A DNA stretch of 52,830 nucleotides from Candidatus Omnitrophota bacterium (lineage in GTDB: Bacteria; Omnitrophota; Gorgyraeia; Gygaellales; Profunditerraquicolaceae). The stretch lies in NCBI GenBank assembly GCA_023819035.1, contig JAMWCL010000003.1:1-52830 (forward strand), in the 5' to 3' direction. This document shows positions 20,360-28,289 of this stretch, one piece after another; position 1 is the first letter of the stretch, and every line of letters starts with the position of its first letter. The position numbers and the translations under genes are program-made. A model generated the notes under the pieces. It ran no database searches, was not told the DNA's origin, and saw only the letters and a list, made by a program, of their open reading frames with translations.

Positions 20360-21508
20360 CTATTTAAAAGCGCGCTTTATTTTATCAGTAAGACTTTCTT
20401 TGTTTATCTCATCTCCTGATAATCTGGCAAATTCTTCAATAAGCTTACGTTGCTGAGGCGTAAGATGTGTAGGGATCACTACATTCACCTTTACCAATTG
20501 ATCACCTATCCCTCTTCCATGTAAGTCGGGAATCCCCTTTGCTTTAAGACGGAATATCTTACCACTCTGGGTTCCTGGGGGTATCTTCATCATTACCTTA
20601 CCATTAAGGGTGGGAACCTCAATCTCACCACCTAATATTGCTTTAACTAAACTAATGTTGATCTCAGTCAAGATATCATTATTGTGCCTTTCAAAGTAAG
20701 GATGTGGTTGGACCTCAATAATTACATATAAATCCCCTCTGCCAGCAGCACCTTGCTCACCTTCTCCTCTTATTCTTAAATGTGAACCTGTATCTACCCC
20801 TTGAGGGATCTTAACCTTAATCTTCCGCGTTACCTTTATACGACCTTCTCCGCGACAGTCTGAACAGGGAGACTGGATAATTGATCCCTCGCCCTGACAA
20901 CGATTACAAGTCCGGGAGAGTTGGAAAAAACCACTTGAGATGACCATCCGGCCCGAACCACGACATTGAGGACAGGTAATCTTCTTTGTCCCTGGTTTAG
21001 CACCTGTTCCCGAACAGGTGGAACAGAACTCATAACGCGGAATAGTTACTATCTTCTCTGTACCGGTGAGTACCTCCTCCAGGGTTACCGAAACCGTGAT
21101 CTCTAAGTCCCTGCCTCTTTTAGGGGTTCGGCGTGTGCGTCGTCCAAATATATCGAAGCCTAAATCCCCAAATATCTCATCAAAAAGACCGCCTCCAAAA
21201 CCAAAATCTGCTAAGTCCTCGAATATACTGGAGAAATCTGCTCCTTTAAAGATATCTTCGTAAGCATATCTTTGATCTATACCTGCATGTCCATACTGAT
21301 CATATAAAGCACGTTTCTGAGGGTCAGATAAGACCGCATATGCCTCAGAGATCTCCTTAAATTTTTCCTCTGCCTCTTTTTTCTGTTCAGCAGGTACACG
21401 GTCAGGATGATAGCGCAAAGCCATCTCCCGATAGGCTTTTTTTATCTCTTCCAGGGTAGCATTCTTTTTTACTCCCAATATCTCATAATAGTCGCGTTTG
21501 ATAGCCAT
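20360..21508 (-). CDS. dnaJ: Chaperone DnaJ
   Basis: DnaJ hands unfolded clients to DnaK and stimulates its ATPase. The 382-residue protein has the J domain with HPD near residue 35, a glycine/phenylalanine-rich linker (about 78-115), four CxxCxGxG zinc repeats (about 155-220), and the C-terminal peptide-binding domain. Three ATG codons stand in tandem; the third, giving [13 protein letters not shown], matches the family start and is used here (the upstream ones would add two methionines). It lies 26 nt after dnaK in the hrcA-grpE-dnaK-dnaJ order. Confidence 0.96.
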
Positions 21509-21534
21509 CATCATCTCAGTTCAACTAAAGATAA

Positions 21535-23409
21535 TTAGCTTTTCTCATCTTCTTCTTTATACTCCGCATCAATTATATCCTCTTGTTTCTTCTTATCTTC
21601 CTCCTTAGCTCCCTCAGGCTTTTCCTGTGTTCTGCTGGTCTGAGACTGCTGGCAGGCTGAGGCTTGCTTATAAATCTCTTCGGCTAATTTATGTGAAGCC
21701 TTGGTTAAATCATCCATTGCCCGTTTAATCCTTTCGATATTTCTATCTTTTATGGCAGTCTTTAAATCATTAAGCCTCGATTCGATCTCTGCGCGCTCCT
21801 GCTGGCTAACCTTATCCCCGAATTCTTTAAGCGATCTTTCTGTAGTATAAACCAAGGTATCTGCCTGATTAATAAGCTCTACCTCCTCCTTCTTCTTTGC
21901 ATCCTCAGCAGCAAATTTCTCCGCCTCTTTAATCATCTTTTCAATCTCTTCTTTAGATAACTTCTTCGGTGCTGTAATCCGGATTGACTGTTCTTTGTTT
22001 GTACCTAAGTCTTTTGCCGAAACATGGACAATACCATTGGCATCGATATCAAAGGTTACCTCGATCTGAGGCACCCCTCGCGGTGCAGGAGGTATCCCGA
22101 TGAGATCAAACCTACCTAACTCTACATTATCATCCGCCATAGGACGTTCTCCCTGCAAAACACGGATAGTTACAGCGGTCTGATTATCTGTAGCAGTAGA
22201 GAAGATCTGAGATTTCCGGGTAGGGATAGTGGTATTTCTTTCAATTAATTTAGTAAACACACCACCTAATGTCTCTATGCCTAAGGATAAAGGAGTAACA
22301 TCTAAAAGTAAAACATCCTTCATCTCACCCTTGATAATTGCTGCCTGAATCGCCGCTCCCATCGCCACACATTCCATCGGATCAATTCCCCGTTCAATCT
22401 TTTTGCCAACATATTCTTCAACAAATCTCTGCACGCAAGGCATACGGGTAGGACCGCCTACCATAATAATCCGGTCGATATCTTGGGGTGTCAACTTCGC
22501 ATCCGCAAGCGCCTGTTCCATCGGATGACGACATCTCTCAATAATGGGTCTGACTAATTCTTCTAATTTTGCCCGCGTTATAGCCATGGTCAGATGTTTT
22601 GGCCCAGTTGCATCTGCAGTGATAAAAGGAAGATTTATATCAGTAGTCAAGGTTGAGGATAGCTCGATCTTTGCCCGCTCGGCTGCCTCACGCAATCTCT
22701 GCATAGCCATCTTATCGTTACGAAGATCAATTCCTGTTTCACGCTTAAATTGTTCAACTATATAGTTAATTAAGGCATTATCCATATCAGTACCACCTAA
22801 CTGCGTATCCCCTGAGGTAGACTTTACCTCAAAAACTCCCTGTGCCATCTCCATAATCGTAACATCTAATGTACCTCCTCCAAAATCAAAGACCATAATC
22901 TTCTGTTCCTTTTGAGATTTCTCCAGACCATATGCCAGACAGGCAGCGGTGGGTTCGTTAATTATTCTTAATACCTTAAGACCGGCAATCTCTCCAGCAT
23001 CTTTGGTTGCAGTTCTTTGATTATCATCAAAATAAGCAGGGCAAGTAATCACTGCCTCCTCAACCTTATCACCTAAATATGCCTCAGCATCCTGCTTTAT
23101 CTTCTGGAGAATAAAAGCGGAGATTTGTTGAGGGGTATATTCCTTACCAAAAACCTTAAATTTATAATCCAAACCCATCTTGCGTTTGGCAGCCATAATG
23201 GTTCCTTCGGGATTAATCGCTGCTTGTCGACGAGCAGGCTCACCTACAAGGCGTTGTCCATCTTTAGTAAAAGCAACTACCGAAGGAAATGCTTTGCCCG
23301 AAGCAACACCTGCACCTTCTGCAGAGGGAATAATTACAGGTCGACCACCCTCCATTACTGCCGCAGCGGAATTGGAGGTTCCTAAGTCAATACCGATTAC
23401 CCTTGCCAT
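21535..23409 (-). CDS. dnaK: Chaperone DnaK (Hsp70)
   Basis: DnaK is the ATP-dependent Hsp70 chaperone. The 624-residue protein opens with [13 protein letters not shown], the phosphate-1 loop; other hallmarks are [23 protein letters not shown], and VGGPTRMP in the nucleotide domain, the linker [15 protein letters not shown], and the substrate domain. The tail is acidic and ends in EEDEKS rather than EEVKK. An AAGGAGG site precedes the ATG. The gene lies between grpE (23 nt away) and dnaJ, under the CIRCE-like operator upstream of hrcA. Confidence 0.98.
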
Positions 23410-23432: not shown

Positions 23433-23972
23433 CTAATCATTAGGTCTTCGAGAAACCTTTACTTTTGCGGTTCTAATTACCCGCTCATTTAATAGATAAC
23501 CCTTTTGAAATTCCTCTAATACCGTATTTTCTGGCACATCTTTATTTTCTACCTGCATCATTGCCTCATGGTAATGAGGATCAAATGCCTTACCCACTGC
23601 CTCAATCGGCTTTACCCCATATTCCTTAAGTAATTCATAAAGATGCGCCAGAATCAATTCCATTCCTTTTAAAAATGCAGAGAAATCCTGATGTTGTGTC
23701 TGAGCAAGTTCCACTGCTCGCTCCAATTCATCAAGAATATTCAATAATTCTAAGATAACACCCTCATTAGCAAACCTTATGAATTCCTGTTTTTCTTTCT
23801 CCCAGCGCTTACGGGTATTCTCAAATTCTGCCTGCAGACGTAATAATCTATCCCAATATTCCTTGGCTTTTTCTGAGTCTTCTTTTAGTTTTAAATAATC
23901 AGATTCACTTAAGGTGATAACCTTTTCTTCTTTGGTTTCAGTCTGTCGATTATTTTCTTTTTTATTTTCCAT
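23433..23972 (-). CDS. grpE: Nucleotide exchange factor GrpE
   Basis: GrpE releases ADP from DnaK. The 179-residue protein has a charged, disordered N-terminus, a long dimerising coiled-coil (about 25-95, with [20 protein letters not shown]), and the C-terminal beta-wing with [19 protein letters not shown] and the [17 protein letters not shown] signature. It follows hrcA by 6 nt and precedes dnaK. Confidence 0.95.
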
Positions 23973-23978
23973 CTTAGA

Positions 23979-24716
23979 CTAAATCCTGTTTAAAACATCA
24001 GTCAAAACCTCAGAGATATACTCTAAAGCAGGAATAATGTGAGCGTATTCCATACGCATCGGACCTAAAACTGCGATTTTACCTGAAGGTTGATACTTAA
24101 GTTGATAGCTAGAAACTACTAAAGAACAGGAGTCCATCTCCGGACAACCCAGCTCCGGACCGATATAGACCTTTACCTTTTCCTTAAAATCTCGGTTAAT
24201 AATCTCTAATAATCTCTGTTTATCCTCCATAACACGTATCAATAAACGAATCCTTTCCAGATCATGAAACTCCGGCTGTTCAAGGATATAACTTATACCT
24301 TTATAAAAAACCTTATCCTGCCATTCTACAAAAGAAACAATCCCGGCATAATGAGTTATGGCAGAGATGATCTCGGAGGTCTGCTCTAAGATATCTTCTA
24401 ATCGTAAGATCTCTTTTTTATATTCCTTCAAAATCCTTTCTTTCTCTTCATCTAAAAGCTCCATCTGGGAAAGGAGAAAATCTACATAATAACGATACCC
24501 CTTACCTGTGGGAATCCTTCCTGAAGAGGTATGGGTATGGGTAAGATAACCGCATTCCTCTAAATCCGATAATATATTCCTTATCGTAGCAGAGCTGAGA
24601 TCAAAATCCTTGGCAATATCTTCCGAGGCGACCGGCTCTTTTTCTTTAATATAACGATCGATCACCTTACTTAGAACTGCCCTTCTTCGATTCTCGTAAT
24701 CTACTAATCTAACCAC
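23979..24716 (-). CDS. hrcA: Compact heat-shock repressor HrcA
   Basis: HrcA represses chaperone operons by binding CIRCE and depends on GroEL for folding. The winged-helix domain is complete (residues 1-80, with TIRNILSDLEECGYL and HTSSGRIPTGKGYRYYVD). The C-terminal block is also present (roughly EQPEF...IGPELG...SYQ and LGPMRMEYAHIIPALEYI). The middle region that normally separates them is missing: the protein has 245 residues against about 340 in the family, and residue 120 runs directly into the segment that normally follows the inserted dimerisation domain. The frame is intact, so this is a real shortening and not a break. The start is a GTG at 24716 behind AGGAGG. It leads hrcA-grpE-dnaK-dnaJ-fmdB. 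Confidence 0.88.
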   Translation of the reverse strand: MVRLVDYENRRRAVLSKVIDRYIKEKEPVASEDIAKDFDLSSATIRNILSDLEECGYLTHTHTSSGRIPTGKGYRYYVDFLLSQMELLDEEKERILKEYKKEILRLEDILEQTSEIISAITHYAGIVSFVEWQDKVFYKGISYILEQPEFHDLERIRLLIRVMEDKQRLLEIINRDFKEKVKVYIGPELGCPEMDSCSLVVSSYQLKYQPSGKIAVLGPMRMEYAHIIPALEYISEVLTDVLNRI

Positions 24717-24740: not shown

Positions 24741-24767
24741 TTAGCAGTCTATAATTAAGAATGCTAA
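24741..24767 (-). promoter_or_regulatory. CIRCE-like operator in front of hrcA
   Basis: On the coding strand TTAGCATTC, nine bases, GACTGCTAA. It matches CIRCE in layout (9-9-9) and in most bases, with changes at the symmetric position (left 7, right 3). It begins six bases after the -10 and so covers the predicted transcription start, the classical position for HrcA autoregulation. It lies 24 nt upstream of the hrcA start. Confidence 0.85.
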
Positions 24768-24773
24768 ATTTTA

Positions 24774-24801
24774 ATTTTAACACAAATTAATCCTTTGTCA
24801 A
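24774..24801 (-). promoter_or_regulatory. Sigma-70 promoter for the hrcA-grpE-dnaK-dnaJ operon
   Basis: TTGACA (24796-24801) and TAAAAT (24774-24779) are 16 bp apart on the minus strand. The -35 lies inside the end of clpB. The CIRCE-like operator follows at once, so repression by HrcA would block start of transcription. Confidence 0.7.
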
Positions 24802-27426
24802 TCTTTCATCCTTCTGGATCTGGAATATAACCTTATTATTCTTGTCTAAATCTATCTGGATTTTATCTGCTTGCTTTAAAGAACCATCGAGTAATTTTAA
24901 GGAAAGGGGATTCTGGATATATCTCTGTATGGTCCTCTTTAATGGGCGCGCACCAAAATTAATATCAAATCCTTTATCGCAAAGAAAATCTTTTACCCTT
25001 TGGGTTATCTTAAGTTCTATCCCTATCTGAGATAGCTTCTTATAAATGGGCTTAAGCTCTAAATCTAAGATCTTGTCAATCTCCTCTTTGTTTAAGGAAT
25101 TAAAGATGATAATCTCATCTATACGATTTAAAAATTCTGGTCGGAAGAATTTTCTTACCTCTTGAAGCAATCTCTCTTTCATATCTTGATATGCTAAGTT
25201 ATCCTTTGTAGTTCTAAATCCAACTGAACCATATTGTTGAATAAGCTCTTGCCCAATATTAGAAGTCATAATAATTAATGTATTTTTAAAATTGACGGTT
25301 CTACCTTGACCATCGGTAAGCCTTCCTTCATCTAAAATCTGTAAAAGAATATTAAATACATCAGGATGCGCCTTTTCAATCTCATCTAAGAGTATTACTG
25401 CATAGGGTCTTCTTCTAATCCTTTCAGTTAGCTGTCCGCCTTCTTCATATCCTACATATCCAGGGGGAGCCCCGATGAGTCGGGAGACGCTAAATTTTTC
25501 CATATACTCAGACATATCTATTCTTACCAGAGCATTTTCATCATCGAATAAAAACCAGGCTAAGGTCTTAGCCAGCTTGGTCTTTCCCACACCTGTAGGT
25601 CCCATAAATATAAAGCTACCGATAGGGCGATTCTCATCGGAAAGCCCGGAGCGTGAACGCCTAATACAATTGGCAATGATCTCAATAGCGTGATCCTGGC
25701 CGATAACCATTTCTTTTAGACGCTCCTCCATCTTCAATAATCTTTCCGTATCGTGCTCCTTAAGTTTCGTTAAAGGGATACCTGTCCATTCTGAAACTAT
25801 CTGAGCAATATCCTCTTCCTCTACCTCTTGGCGTAACATCGGGGTCTGATTCTGGGTGATCTTCAGTTGCTCATTATAATTCTTTAACTCCTTTTCTAAT
25901 TCAATCAATCTTCCATATTTTATTTCTGCTACCTTATCTAAATCTCCCATTTTCTCTGAATTTACTGCCTCGAGCTTCAATTCCTCTATTTTCTCTTTAA
26001 TCTTTTTAATCTTTAAAATTAGTGATTTTTCCTTTTCCCATTGTTGTTTTTTATTCTCTAAGTCTTTCTTAAGTTCTCCTATCTCTTTTTCTACCTTATT
26101 TAATCTTTCAAGGCTAGATTCATCCTTTTCTTTTTTTAAGGCCTGTCTTTCTATCTCTAATTGGATAATCTTCCTTTGCACCGCATCAATTTGCTGGGGC
26201 ATACTGTCTATCTCTAAGCGAAGTCGTGATGCTGCTTCATCAATCAGATCTACTGCTTTATCAGGAAGGTGTCGGTCAGTAATATAACGTGATGAAAGTC
26301 TTGCTGCAGCAATAAGCGCTGAATCCTTAATTCTTACCCCATGATGAATCTCATATCTTTCCTTTAAGCCCCTTAAGATAGCAATGGTATCTTCTATCGT
26401 GGGCTCTTCTATAAATATGGGTTGGAATCTTCTTTCTAAGGCTCCATCCTTTTCAATATGTTTGCGATATTCATCTAAGGTAGTAGCGCCAATGCAACGT
26501 AACTTTCCTCGGGCAAGCAGAGGTTTTAACATATTAGAAGCATCAATTGCACCCTCAGCTGCACCAGCGCCCACCAAGGTATGTAACTCATCGATAAAAA
26601 GAATAATCTGGCCATTCTTATTTTCTATCTCGCGTAATACCGCCTTTAATCTATTCTCAAACTCACCGCGGAATTTTGCTCCGGCAACCAGACTCCCTAA
26701 ATCTAAGGCAATTATTCTTTTCTCCTTTAATCCTTCAGGTACATCACCTGAAACAATCCGCTGGGCTAAGCCTTCCACGATTGCAGTCTTTCCTACCCCG
26801 GGTTCACCGATTAAGACCGGATTATTTTTAGTGCGCCGGGATAAAACCTGCATTACTCGGCGTATCTCTCTATCCCGACCAATTACCGGATCAAGCTTTC
26901 CCCTTAAGGCTAAATCTGTAAGGTCTTGTCCATAGCGGGATAAGGCATTGAATTTCTCTTCAGGATTCTCATCGGTTATCCGGTGGCTACCCCTAATTTG
27001 TGCCAGGGCCATAAGTATCTTCTCTTTATCTATACCACGCCTCTTTAATTCTTGTGTAATCGAGGAGGCGCTATCGGAGAATAAAGACAAAAGAAGGTGT
27101 TCTCCTGAAAGAAACTCATCCTTTAATAATTGCGCTTCCTGGGTAGCCTGAGTAAAAAGTTGATTTGTGCGAGGAGAAAAATAGACCTGAAGAGATTTAC
27201 CGCTTACCGCAGGTTTTTTCTTAAGCTCTTCTTCAATTAATCTAATTATAGAAAAACTAGGGATACCCAGCTTATCTAAGACCAGAAGAATGATACTTTC
27301 TGATTGTCTGAGTAAGGCATAAAAGATGTGTTCGGGTTCCACCTGTTGATGGCCGGACTGCGTAGCGAAATTAATCGCTTCCTGGATTGCCTCTTGTAAT
27401 TTTACGGTTAATCTATCTAATCGCAT
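24787..27426 (-). CDS. clpB: Disaggregase ClpB (AAA+ chaperone)
   Basis: ClpB extracts proteins from aggregates together with DnaK. The 879-residue protein has the N domain (about 1-145), the first AAA+ module with Walker A GEPGVGKT (207-214), a long coiled-coil middle domain (about 410-530, rich in EK), the linker with [11 protein letters not shown], and the second AAA+ module with GPTGVGKT near 610 and [12 protein letters not shown]. The length and coiled-coil separate it from ClpA/ClpC. It follows hsp20 by 57 nt that hold no operator, so both probably share one message, and it ends where the hrcA promoter begins. Confidence 0.97.
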
Positions 27427-27483: not shown

Positions 27484-27942
27484 TTATTTCACCTCTACCT
27501 TTATCTGTTTAGGTTTGGACTCTTCAGTCTTAGGGATAACTATCTCTAAGACCCCGTCCTTATAGGTTGCTTTTACCTTGGTAGTATCCGCATAAGGGGG
27601 TAAAGTGAAACTGCGTTTAAATACACCATAGAATCTCTCTATTCGGTGATAACTCTTATCCTTAACCTCTTCTTCGCGCTTCCTTTCTCCCTGAAGGGTA
27701 AGAATATCACCGGTAATAGAGATATTTATGTCTTGCTGTTTCACTCCCGGTAGATCTGCTTTAATAATTATATTCTCCTTATCCTCTGCCACATCCAAAG
27801 AAGGAGACCAGATGCCTTCTTTAGAGACCCTTTCGGGTAAGAGTTCAAGGGAAGTATCGAAGAAACGTTGGAATTCCTTTTCCAGATCAAGGAGTTCCCG
27901 GAAAGGATCCCATTCTCTACCTCTCCATTTTATGAGTGCCAT
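27484..27942 (-). CDS. Small heat-shock protein (Hsp20/alpha-crystallin)
   Basis: This 152-residue holdase has the alpha-crystallin domain (about 45-145): SLDVAEDKENIIIKADLPGV, the loop with ERFYGVFKRSFTLP and the closing YKDGVLEIVIPK. The C-terminal I-x-V anchor appears as IKVEV. The start chosen is the ATG at 27942 (MALIKWRG), which has AAGGAGG eight bases upstream; an in-frame GTG nine bases further up lies within that ribosome binding site. A CIRCE-like operator lies 40 nt upstream and an HspR-like gene before that. It is followed by clpB. Confidence 0.93.
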   Translation of the reverse strand: MALIKWRGREWDPFRELLDLEKEFQRFFDTSLELLPERVSKEGIWSPSLDVAEDKENIIIKADLPGVKQQDINISITGDILTLQGERKREEEVKDKSYHRIERFYGVFKRSFTLPPYADTTKVKATYKDGVLEIVIPKTEESKPKQIKVEVK

Positions 27943-27982
27943 ATCTATCACCTCCTTTTTTACCTCCCTGGCAGCTCTTTTA

Positions 27983-28009
27983 TTAGCAGTCTGATAAATT
28001 AACTGCTAA
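27983..28009 (-). promoter_or_regulatory. CIRCE-like operator in front of hsp20-clpB
   Basis: On the coding strand TTAGCAGTT, nine bases, GACTGCTAA; the outer seven bases of each arm (TTAGCAG and CTGCTAA) are perfectly complementary. The spacing is that of CIRCE but the central-most conserved base pair is changed compared with consensus. It lies between the HspR-like gene (16 nt away) and hsp20 (40 nt). No clear separate promoter was found between the two genes. Confidence 0.75.
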
Positions 28010-28025: not shown

Positions 28026-28289
28026 TTATTCTTTGCTTTCTAATTCTAAGATTACCCTTATTCCATTAATGTTAACCCCCTTTTCTTCCATTAAGAAATG
28101 AATATATTCTAATTTTTTTATATCTTTTAAGGAATAAAGACGGATCTTCCTACCCACCCTCTTGGGACAAACGATCCCTGCCTTATCTAATTGACGCAGG
28201 GTCCAGATGGGAAGATCTACAAGTTTACTTACCACGCTGATGACATATACCGGTTCATCCGGGCTGATATGGATATCGAAGAGGGGCAT
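28026..28289 (-). CDS. MerR-family HspR-like heat-shock regulator, copy 2
   Basis: This 87-residue winged-helix protein is a minimal MerR-type regulator without an effector domain. It reads DEPVYVISVVSKLVDLP, then WTLRQLDKAGIV, a basic wing ending RLYS, and KGVNINGIRVILELE at the end, a pattern very like HspR. HspR normally represses dnaK or clpB through HAIR boxes (CTTGAGT-N7-ACTCAAG); none was seen here. It has a consensus promoter and an AAGGAGG ribosome binding site, and stands directly upstream of a CIRCE-like operator, hsp20 and clpB. The first copy (1053-1349) stands the same way before groESL. Confidence 0.8.
   Translation of the reverse strand: MPLFDIHISPDEPVYVISVVSKLVDLPIWTLRQLDKAGIVCPKRVGRKIRLYSLKDIKKLEYIHFLMEEKGVNINGIRVILELESKE

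What the first reader, a model, noticed from the sequence alone, without database searches (positions are those of the whole stretch)
23979..24716. HrcA lacks its middle region but appears intact at both ends
The protein is 245 residues against about 340 in the family. The DNA-binding winged helix and the C-terminal GPMRMEY block are present, while the region that normally holds the inserted dimerisation domain and part of the GAF-like fold is missing, with the frame uninterrupted. Together with the changed operators this suggests a reworked repressor.
Basis: partly seen in the sequence, partly recalled or inferred. Interest (0 to 1): 0.6.

Follow-up and report, generated by a model that had tools for sequence, protein, structure and literature searches.

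The report
Heat-shock repressor HrcA without dimerisation domain
The heat-shock repressor gene here codes for a trimmed but intact protein that has cleanly lost one whole domain, a loss repeated many times in bacteria although the DNA site it reads keeps its layout, which suggests that the lost domain is not essential for recognising that site.

Summary
Window 23979-24716, minus strand, codes for a 245-residue HrcA in a clpB/hrcA/grpE/dnaK/dnaJ cluster with a CIRCE operator upstream. It scores above the curated HrcA cut-off. About 98 residues are missing as one block.

Predicted structures of the short and a long form show that the block is the inserted dimerising domain. The GAF-like fold is complete: its first two strands are simply joined. 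It is not an assembly error. Every match in the window's order that spans the region has the short form, as do roughly 70% of sampled Candidatus Omnitrophota HrcA genes. Lengths are bimodal (239-277 versus 342-362).

Short forms also occur in Margulisbacteria/Saganbacteria, Patescibacteria, Planktophila and a Clostridia genome. Trees need 11-13 long/short changes; a single short Omnitrophota clade is rejected (p-AU 0.0004). One family holds both forms as sisters.

CIRCE keeps its 9-9-9 geometry in both forms, so the short protein very probably still binds as a dimer. Operators here are changed at half-site position 7 in both halves of all three sites, unlike 47 sites in 23 relatives; that drift does not track domain loss. 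A new variant of a known repressor; function inferred, not tested.

The parts
23979..24716 (-). hrcA, short form, 245 aa (GTG start)
   Evidence: ORF; TIGR00331 234 bits over cut-off 197; PF01628 and PF03444
24474..24713 (-). N-terminal winged-helix DNA-binding domain, residues 2-81
   Evidence: AF2 model helices 2-25, 31-38, 42-54, wing strands 58-60 and 67-69, helix 71-81; aligned to 1stz residues 16-96
23985..24401 (-). complete GAF-like domain, residues 106-244
   Evidence: element-by-element match with the long-form model; Foldseek to 1stz, then IclR and CodY
24312..24329 (-). junction (residues 130-135) where long HrcA carries the about 98-residue inserted dimerising domain
   Evidence: alignment, linker lengths 15-27 vs 112-120, models
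24741..24767 (.). CIRCE operator of hrcA-grpE-dnaK-dnaJ: TTAGCATTC-N9-GACTGCTAA on the minus strand
   Evidence: 2 mismatches to consensus; two sites found in the window against 0.01 expected
24774..24801 (-). inferred sigma70-type promoter TTGACA-N16-TAAAAT just upstream of CIRCE
   Evidence: read from sequence; the same layout in most relatives of the main short clade
27983..28009 (.). second CIRCE, upstream of hsp20 (27484-27951, -) and clpB (24787-27426, -)
   Evidence: 3 mismatches, sequence
23433..23972 (-). grpE, next gene of the operon
   Evidence: PF01025 6.9e-51
21535..23409 (-). dnaK (named from its sequence)
   Evidence: ORF, sequence
20360..21514 (-). dnaJ (named from its sequence)
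   Evidence: ORF, sequence

Best explanation
This is the organism's only HrcA: a functional CIRCE-binding heat-shock repressor that has lost the inserted dimerising domain (IDD) as a unit. The winged helix and a closed, complete GAF-like domain remain, a layout like that of IclR regulators. Shown: the precise absence, the conservation of the short form, its repeated origin, and CIRCE operators with unchanged geometry upstream of hrcA, hsp20 and groES. Inferred: the protein still binds the palindrome as a homodimer, now held together by GAF-like (and C-terminal helix) contacts, and represses the hrcA-grpE-dnaK-dnaJ, hsp20-clpB and groES-groEL genes until heat stress inactivates it or chaperonin is titrated away.
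For: TIGR00331 and Pfam over cut-offs. Cluster context and three CIRCE sites in the genome at hrcA, hsp20 and groES. Every match in the window's order that spans the region is short, over more than 40 genera. Bimodal lengths and linkers 15-27, 42-43 or 112-120. AF2 short model pLDDT 90.7 joins strand 124-129 to 136-139; long model pLDDT 87.0 has three strands and three helices (137-231) between the same strands. Best fold match 1stz for both; the short model next resembles IclR. 11-13 long/short changes; AU test rejects one Omnitrophota short clade, p 0.0004. 9-9-9 CIRCE upstream of 81 of 98 short and 43 of 45 long hrcA genes, never another spacing among good sites.
Against: No binding, dimerisation or expression data. 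No dimer could be modelled. No convergent compensating substitutions were seen in the short forms, which fits either a pre-existing GAF contact or a test too weak to see them. About 17 of 98 short genes have no good CIRCE directly upstream, perhaps mostly because the operon begins further up.
Confidence: 0.83

Rival explanations
1. Assembly error or decaying pseudogene: the middle was lost by misassembly or recent in-frame deletion and the protein no longer works.
For: The genome is a draft in 57 contigs at 92.6% completeness.
Against: The same deletion is found in independent genomes of more than 40 genera at 48-75% identity with no internal stops and in other phyla; the operators are kept.
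Confidence: 0.01
2. Reworked repressor with a broken sensor domain and a new operator specificity arising together.
For: In the window genome none of six half-sites keeps the canonical C at position 7; in 23 relatives no site has both halves changed.
Against: The GAF-like fold is complete. Other short clades keep near-perfect CIRCE, 16 of 17 sites perfect. No residue of the DNA-binding domain tracks the operator change.
Confidence: 0.1
3. The short form is ancestral in these bacteria and the IDD was gained several times.
For: Parsimony counts on an unrooted tree cannot tell gain from loss; the short form is the majority in the phylum.
Against: A homologous domain would have to enter the same loop about ten times. 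Families f17 and f46 keep a 42-43-residue linker that looks like a remnant. In the HrcA tree, long forms of other phyla surround the Omnitrophota.
Confidence: 0.05
4. The short HrcA works as a monomer or only with a partner, e.g. two monomers placed independently on CIRCE, or a co-repressor such as the small MerR-like regulator next to hsp20.
For: The main dimer contact of 1stz is reported in the literature (from memory) to be the IDD. A MerR-type protein is encoded next to hsp20.
Against: Spacing between half-sites is rigidly 9 in all clades, as expected of a fixed dimer. IclR and CodY relatives of the same fold dimerise without an IDD (general knowledge).
Confidence: 0.12

Closest known systems
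HrcA of Thermotoga maritima (PDB 1stz), canonical three-domain HrcA
   Same: Winged helix and GAF-like domain, same order and fold; best structural match of both models.
   Different: Lacks the about 98-residue inserted dimerising domain between the first two GAF strands.
Long HrcA of other Omnitrophota families (e.g. L057, L031, L038)
   Same: Same family and same CIRCE; L057 is in the same taxonomic family as the short L128, 59% identical over shared columns.
   Different: 342-362 aa with the IDD.
Epsilonproteobacterial HrcA (NCBIfam NF003033, 264 positions)
   Same: Also short; winged helix matches.
   Different: 63 bits against a cut-off of 248; only residues 9-102 align. Whether it lacks the same block was not tested. 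That NF003033 is the epsilonproteobacterial form is from memory.
IclR family
   Same: Winged helix plus GAF-like domain in about 250 residues; next-best fold matches.
   Different: No significant sequence match to an IclR effector domain; TM-scores only 0.3-0.4; different operators.

Membership tests
HrcA (NCBIfam TIGR00331 equivalog) | score over the curated cut-off | tested here: met
   234.4 bits against 197.2
HrcA (NCBIfam TIGR00331 equivalog) | HrcA-type winged helix (PF03444) and C-terminal GAF-like domain (PF01628) | tested here: met
   29 and 112 bits, both over their cut-offs; AF2 model
HrcA (NCBIfam TIGR00331 equivalog) | CIRCE operator upstream of chaperone genes, including its own operon | tested here: met
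HrcA (NCBIfam TIGR00331 equivalog) | binds CIRCE and represses; activity modulated by GroE or heat | not testable with these tools
   needs biochemistry
Canonical three-domain HrcA (1stz architecture) | inserted dimerising domain | tested here: not met
Epsilonproteobacterial short HrcA (NF003033) | score over the curated cut-off (248 bits) | tested here: not met
   63.2 bits
IclR family | IclR helix-turn-helix and effector-binding domain by Pfam | tested here: not met
   PF09339 21.7 bits, below its 22 cut-off; no IclR effector-domain hit

The most novel reading that the evidence does not exclude
IDD loss is a recurrent, modular switch of HrcA between two architectures in many bacterial phyla, changing how the repressor dimerises or senses heat or chaperonin while keeping the CIRCE code; and the window's lineage has in addition moved its operator code at half-site position 7 in step with its HrcA.
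Probability: 0.3. Interest if true: 0.6.

Novelty: new variant of a known kind. Interest (0 to 1): 0.42.

Why it matters
The only solved HrcA (1stz) owes most of its dimer to the IDD, according to the published description (from memory). Natural HrcA proteins that have repeatedly lost exactly this domain while keeping the palindromic operator are a ready-made deletion experiment. They make it testable whether the IDD serves DNA binding at all, or instead serves stability, heat inactivation or GroE dependence. They also warn annotators that a 240-residue HrcA is not a truncated gene.

Tried and rejected
(1) Artefact or pseudogene: rejected. (2) Damaged GAF fold: rejected by the models. (3) IDD encoded elsewhere in the genome: the TIGR00331 profile finds only the two stretches of this gene in G000. 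(4) Altered operator spacing after domain loss: scanned gaps 4-15, only 9 found among good sites. (5) Compensating hydrophobic substitutions in eight short/long pairs: nothing beyond scattered columns. (6) A DNA-contact residue that explains the position-7 change: P61T is the only strong departure from consensus and is shared with family f37, which lacks the two-sided operator change. (7) HspR-type HAIR site in the window: none. (8) Open-access papers describing IDD-less HrcA: none found; subscription journals were not searched.

Full report
OBSERVATION. The ORF at 23979-24716 lies on the minus strand, starts with GTG and codes for 245 residues without interruption. On the minus strand the order is hsp20 (27484-27951), clpB, hrcA, grpE, dnaK, dnaJ. 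The protein is HrcA by the curated NCBIfam model (234 bits, cut-off 197) and by both Pfam domains. The model matches in two stretches that skip its middle. A CIRCE-like palindrome, TTAGCATTC-N9-GACTGCTAA, lies at 24741-24767, and a second one at 27983-28009 in front of hsp20; 0.01 such sites are expected in the window by chance.

NOT AN ARTEFACT. In 58 genomes of the window's family, order and class, 51 have a match. All those in the same order that span the region have the short form (open frames 243-273 aa), at 48-75% identity, in more than 40 genera; one (G009) is split into two frames. Two of the three class-level outsiders carry an IDD-long gene and one is short. In 285 genomes across the phylum, 259 match. 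By my hand count of the listing about 75 match the family profile over its whole length; most of the others match as two stretches of one short frame, with a few fragments at contig ends. The 145 complete genes fetched fall into two groups, 239-277 and 342-362 residues, with nothing between. Public records name the closest relatives Candidatus Omnitrophota.

WHAT IS MISSING. In the alignment the gap begins just after the strand 'GIVSF' and ends just before 'KVFYKG'. Between conserved T121 and G140 short proteins have 15-27 residues (18 in most), long ones 112-120. Families f17 and f46 have 42-43, probably a remnant. AlphaFold2 on the window protein with 21 relatives gives a confident model (pLDDT 90.7, pTM 0.87). 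A long Omnitrophota HrcA gives pLDDT 87.0. The elements match one to one, except that the long model has strands 137-145, 150-157, 162-168 and helices 175-189, 194-207, 213-231 between GAF strand 125-129 and GAF strand 236-239, where the short model runs directly from strand 124-129 to strand 136-139. A three-stranded sheet with helices inserted in the GAF-like domain is the published description of the IDD of T. maritima HrcA (from memory; the paper is not in the library searched). Both models match 1stz best; after 1stz the short model resembles IclR regulators (weakly, TM 0.3-0.4) and then CodY. So the IDD is absent as a unit and the GAF-like fold is whole.

HOW OFTEN. A genome-wide scan also brought short HrcA genes from Saganbacteria, Termititenax (Margulisbacteria), Magasanikbacteria and Peregrinibacteria (Patescibacteria), a Clostridia genome and Planktophila lacus with a relative (Actinomycetota). 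On trees built without the IDD columns, long/short changes number 13 (221 rows) and 11 (93 rows). Holding all Omnitrophota short forms together is rejected (p-AU 0.0004); the group was defined by the trait, not from the tree. Family f28 contains a short (L128) and a long (L057) gene as sisters with support 100/100 and 59% identity over shared columns. Gain versus loss is not decided by these counts; repeated loss is favoured because a homologous domain would otherwise have to be inserted repeatedly at one place, and because of the remnants. Deep branches of the HrcA tree are weakly supported, so the number of events is approximate.

OPERATORS. Among hrcA upstream regions with a good CIRCE the spacing is 9 in 81 of 81 short and 43 of 43 long cases. 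This rigid palindrome is the main evidence that short HrcA still binds as a dimer. Position 7 of the half-site (TTAGCA-C-TC) has drifted in the large short clade that includes the window: in the 5' half C in only 22 of 65, in the 3' half C in 63 of 65. In other short clades it is C in 17 of 17 and in long Omnitrophota 42 of 43. Genome-wide, 47 sites in 23 other genomes of that clade have zero (25) or one (22) changed half, never two; the window genome has both halves changed in all three of its sites (hrcA, hsp20, groES). In a comparison set of long and other short genomes the sites listed keep C in both halves. The drift therefore does not follow from IDD loss as such; in the window genome it looks like a lineage-specific shift, with no obvious matching protein change.

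MECHANISM. Most likely a working repressor of the hrcA-grpE-dnaK-dnaJ, hsp20-clpB and groES-groEL genes, dimerising through the GAF-like domain and binding CIRCE across the start of transcription (a TTGACA-N16-TAAAAT promoter ends six bases upstream of CIRCE). Dimerisation, repression and the release signal are inferred. The IDD would then be an accessory element, for stability or for heat or GroE control, rather than a requirement for operator recognition.

NOVELTY. Short HrcA proteins are known in Campylobacterota (from memory; NCBIfam has a 264-position model, and the window protein scores far below its cut-off), but I found no open-access paper describing precise, repeated loss of the IDD. 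I rate it a new variant of a known kind with moderate interest.

Noticed in passing
window 24741-24767, 27983-28009 and G000 contig C35:26272-26298: All three CIRCE sites of this genome lack the canonical C at half-site position 7 in both halves (five G, one T), while none of 47 sites in 23 relatives has both halves changed.
   Followed up: partly
upstream of hrcA in the main short-form clade (65 genomes with a site): The two halves of CIRCE drift unequally: position 7 is non-C in 43 of 65 promoter-proximal halves but in 2 of 65 promoter-distal halves. Unexplained.
   Followed up: partly
window 28026-28289 (-): Small MerR-type protein (87 aa), HspR-like in size and place, directly upstream of hsp20; no HAIR-type site found in the window.
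   Followed up: partly
L082-L085 (family f17) and L131 (family f46): HrcA with a 42-43-residue linker in place of the inserted domain, apparently a remnant.
   Followed up: partly
L186, L184 (Planktophila and relative), L169 (Termititenax), L176/L234 (Magasanikbacteria), L170 (Clostridia genome): Short HrcA lacking the same block outside Omnitrophota; three Magasanikbacteria genes (L176, L178, L234) have TTATCACTC half-sites, i.e. another changed position.
   Followed up: partly
G023, G024, G025, G185 (window's family): Several fairly complete genomes of the family show no HrcA match at all, a possible complete loss.
   Followed up: no
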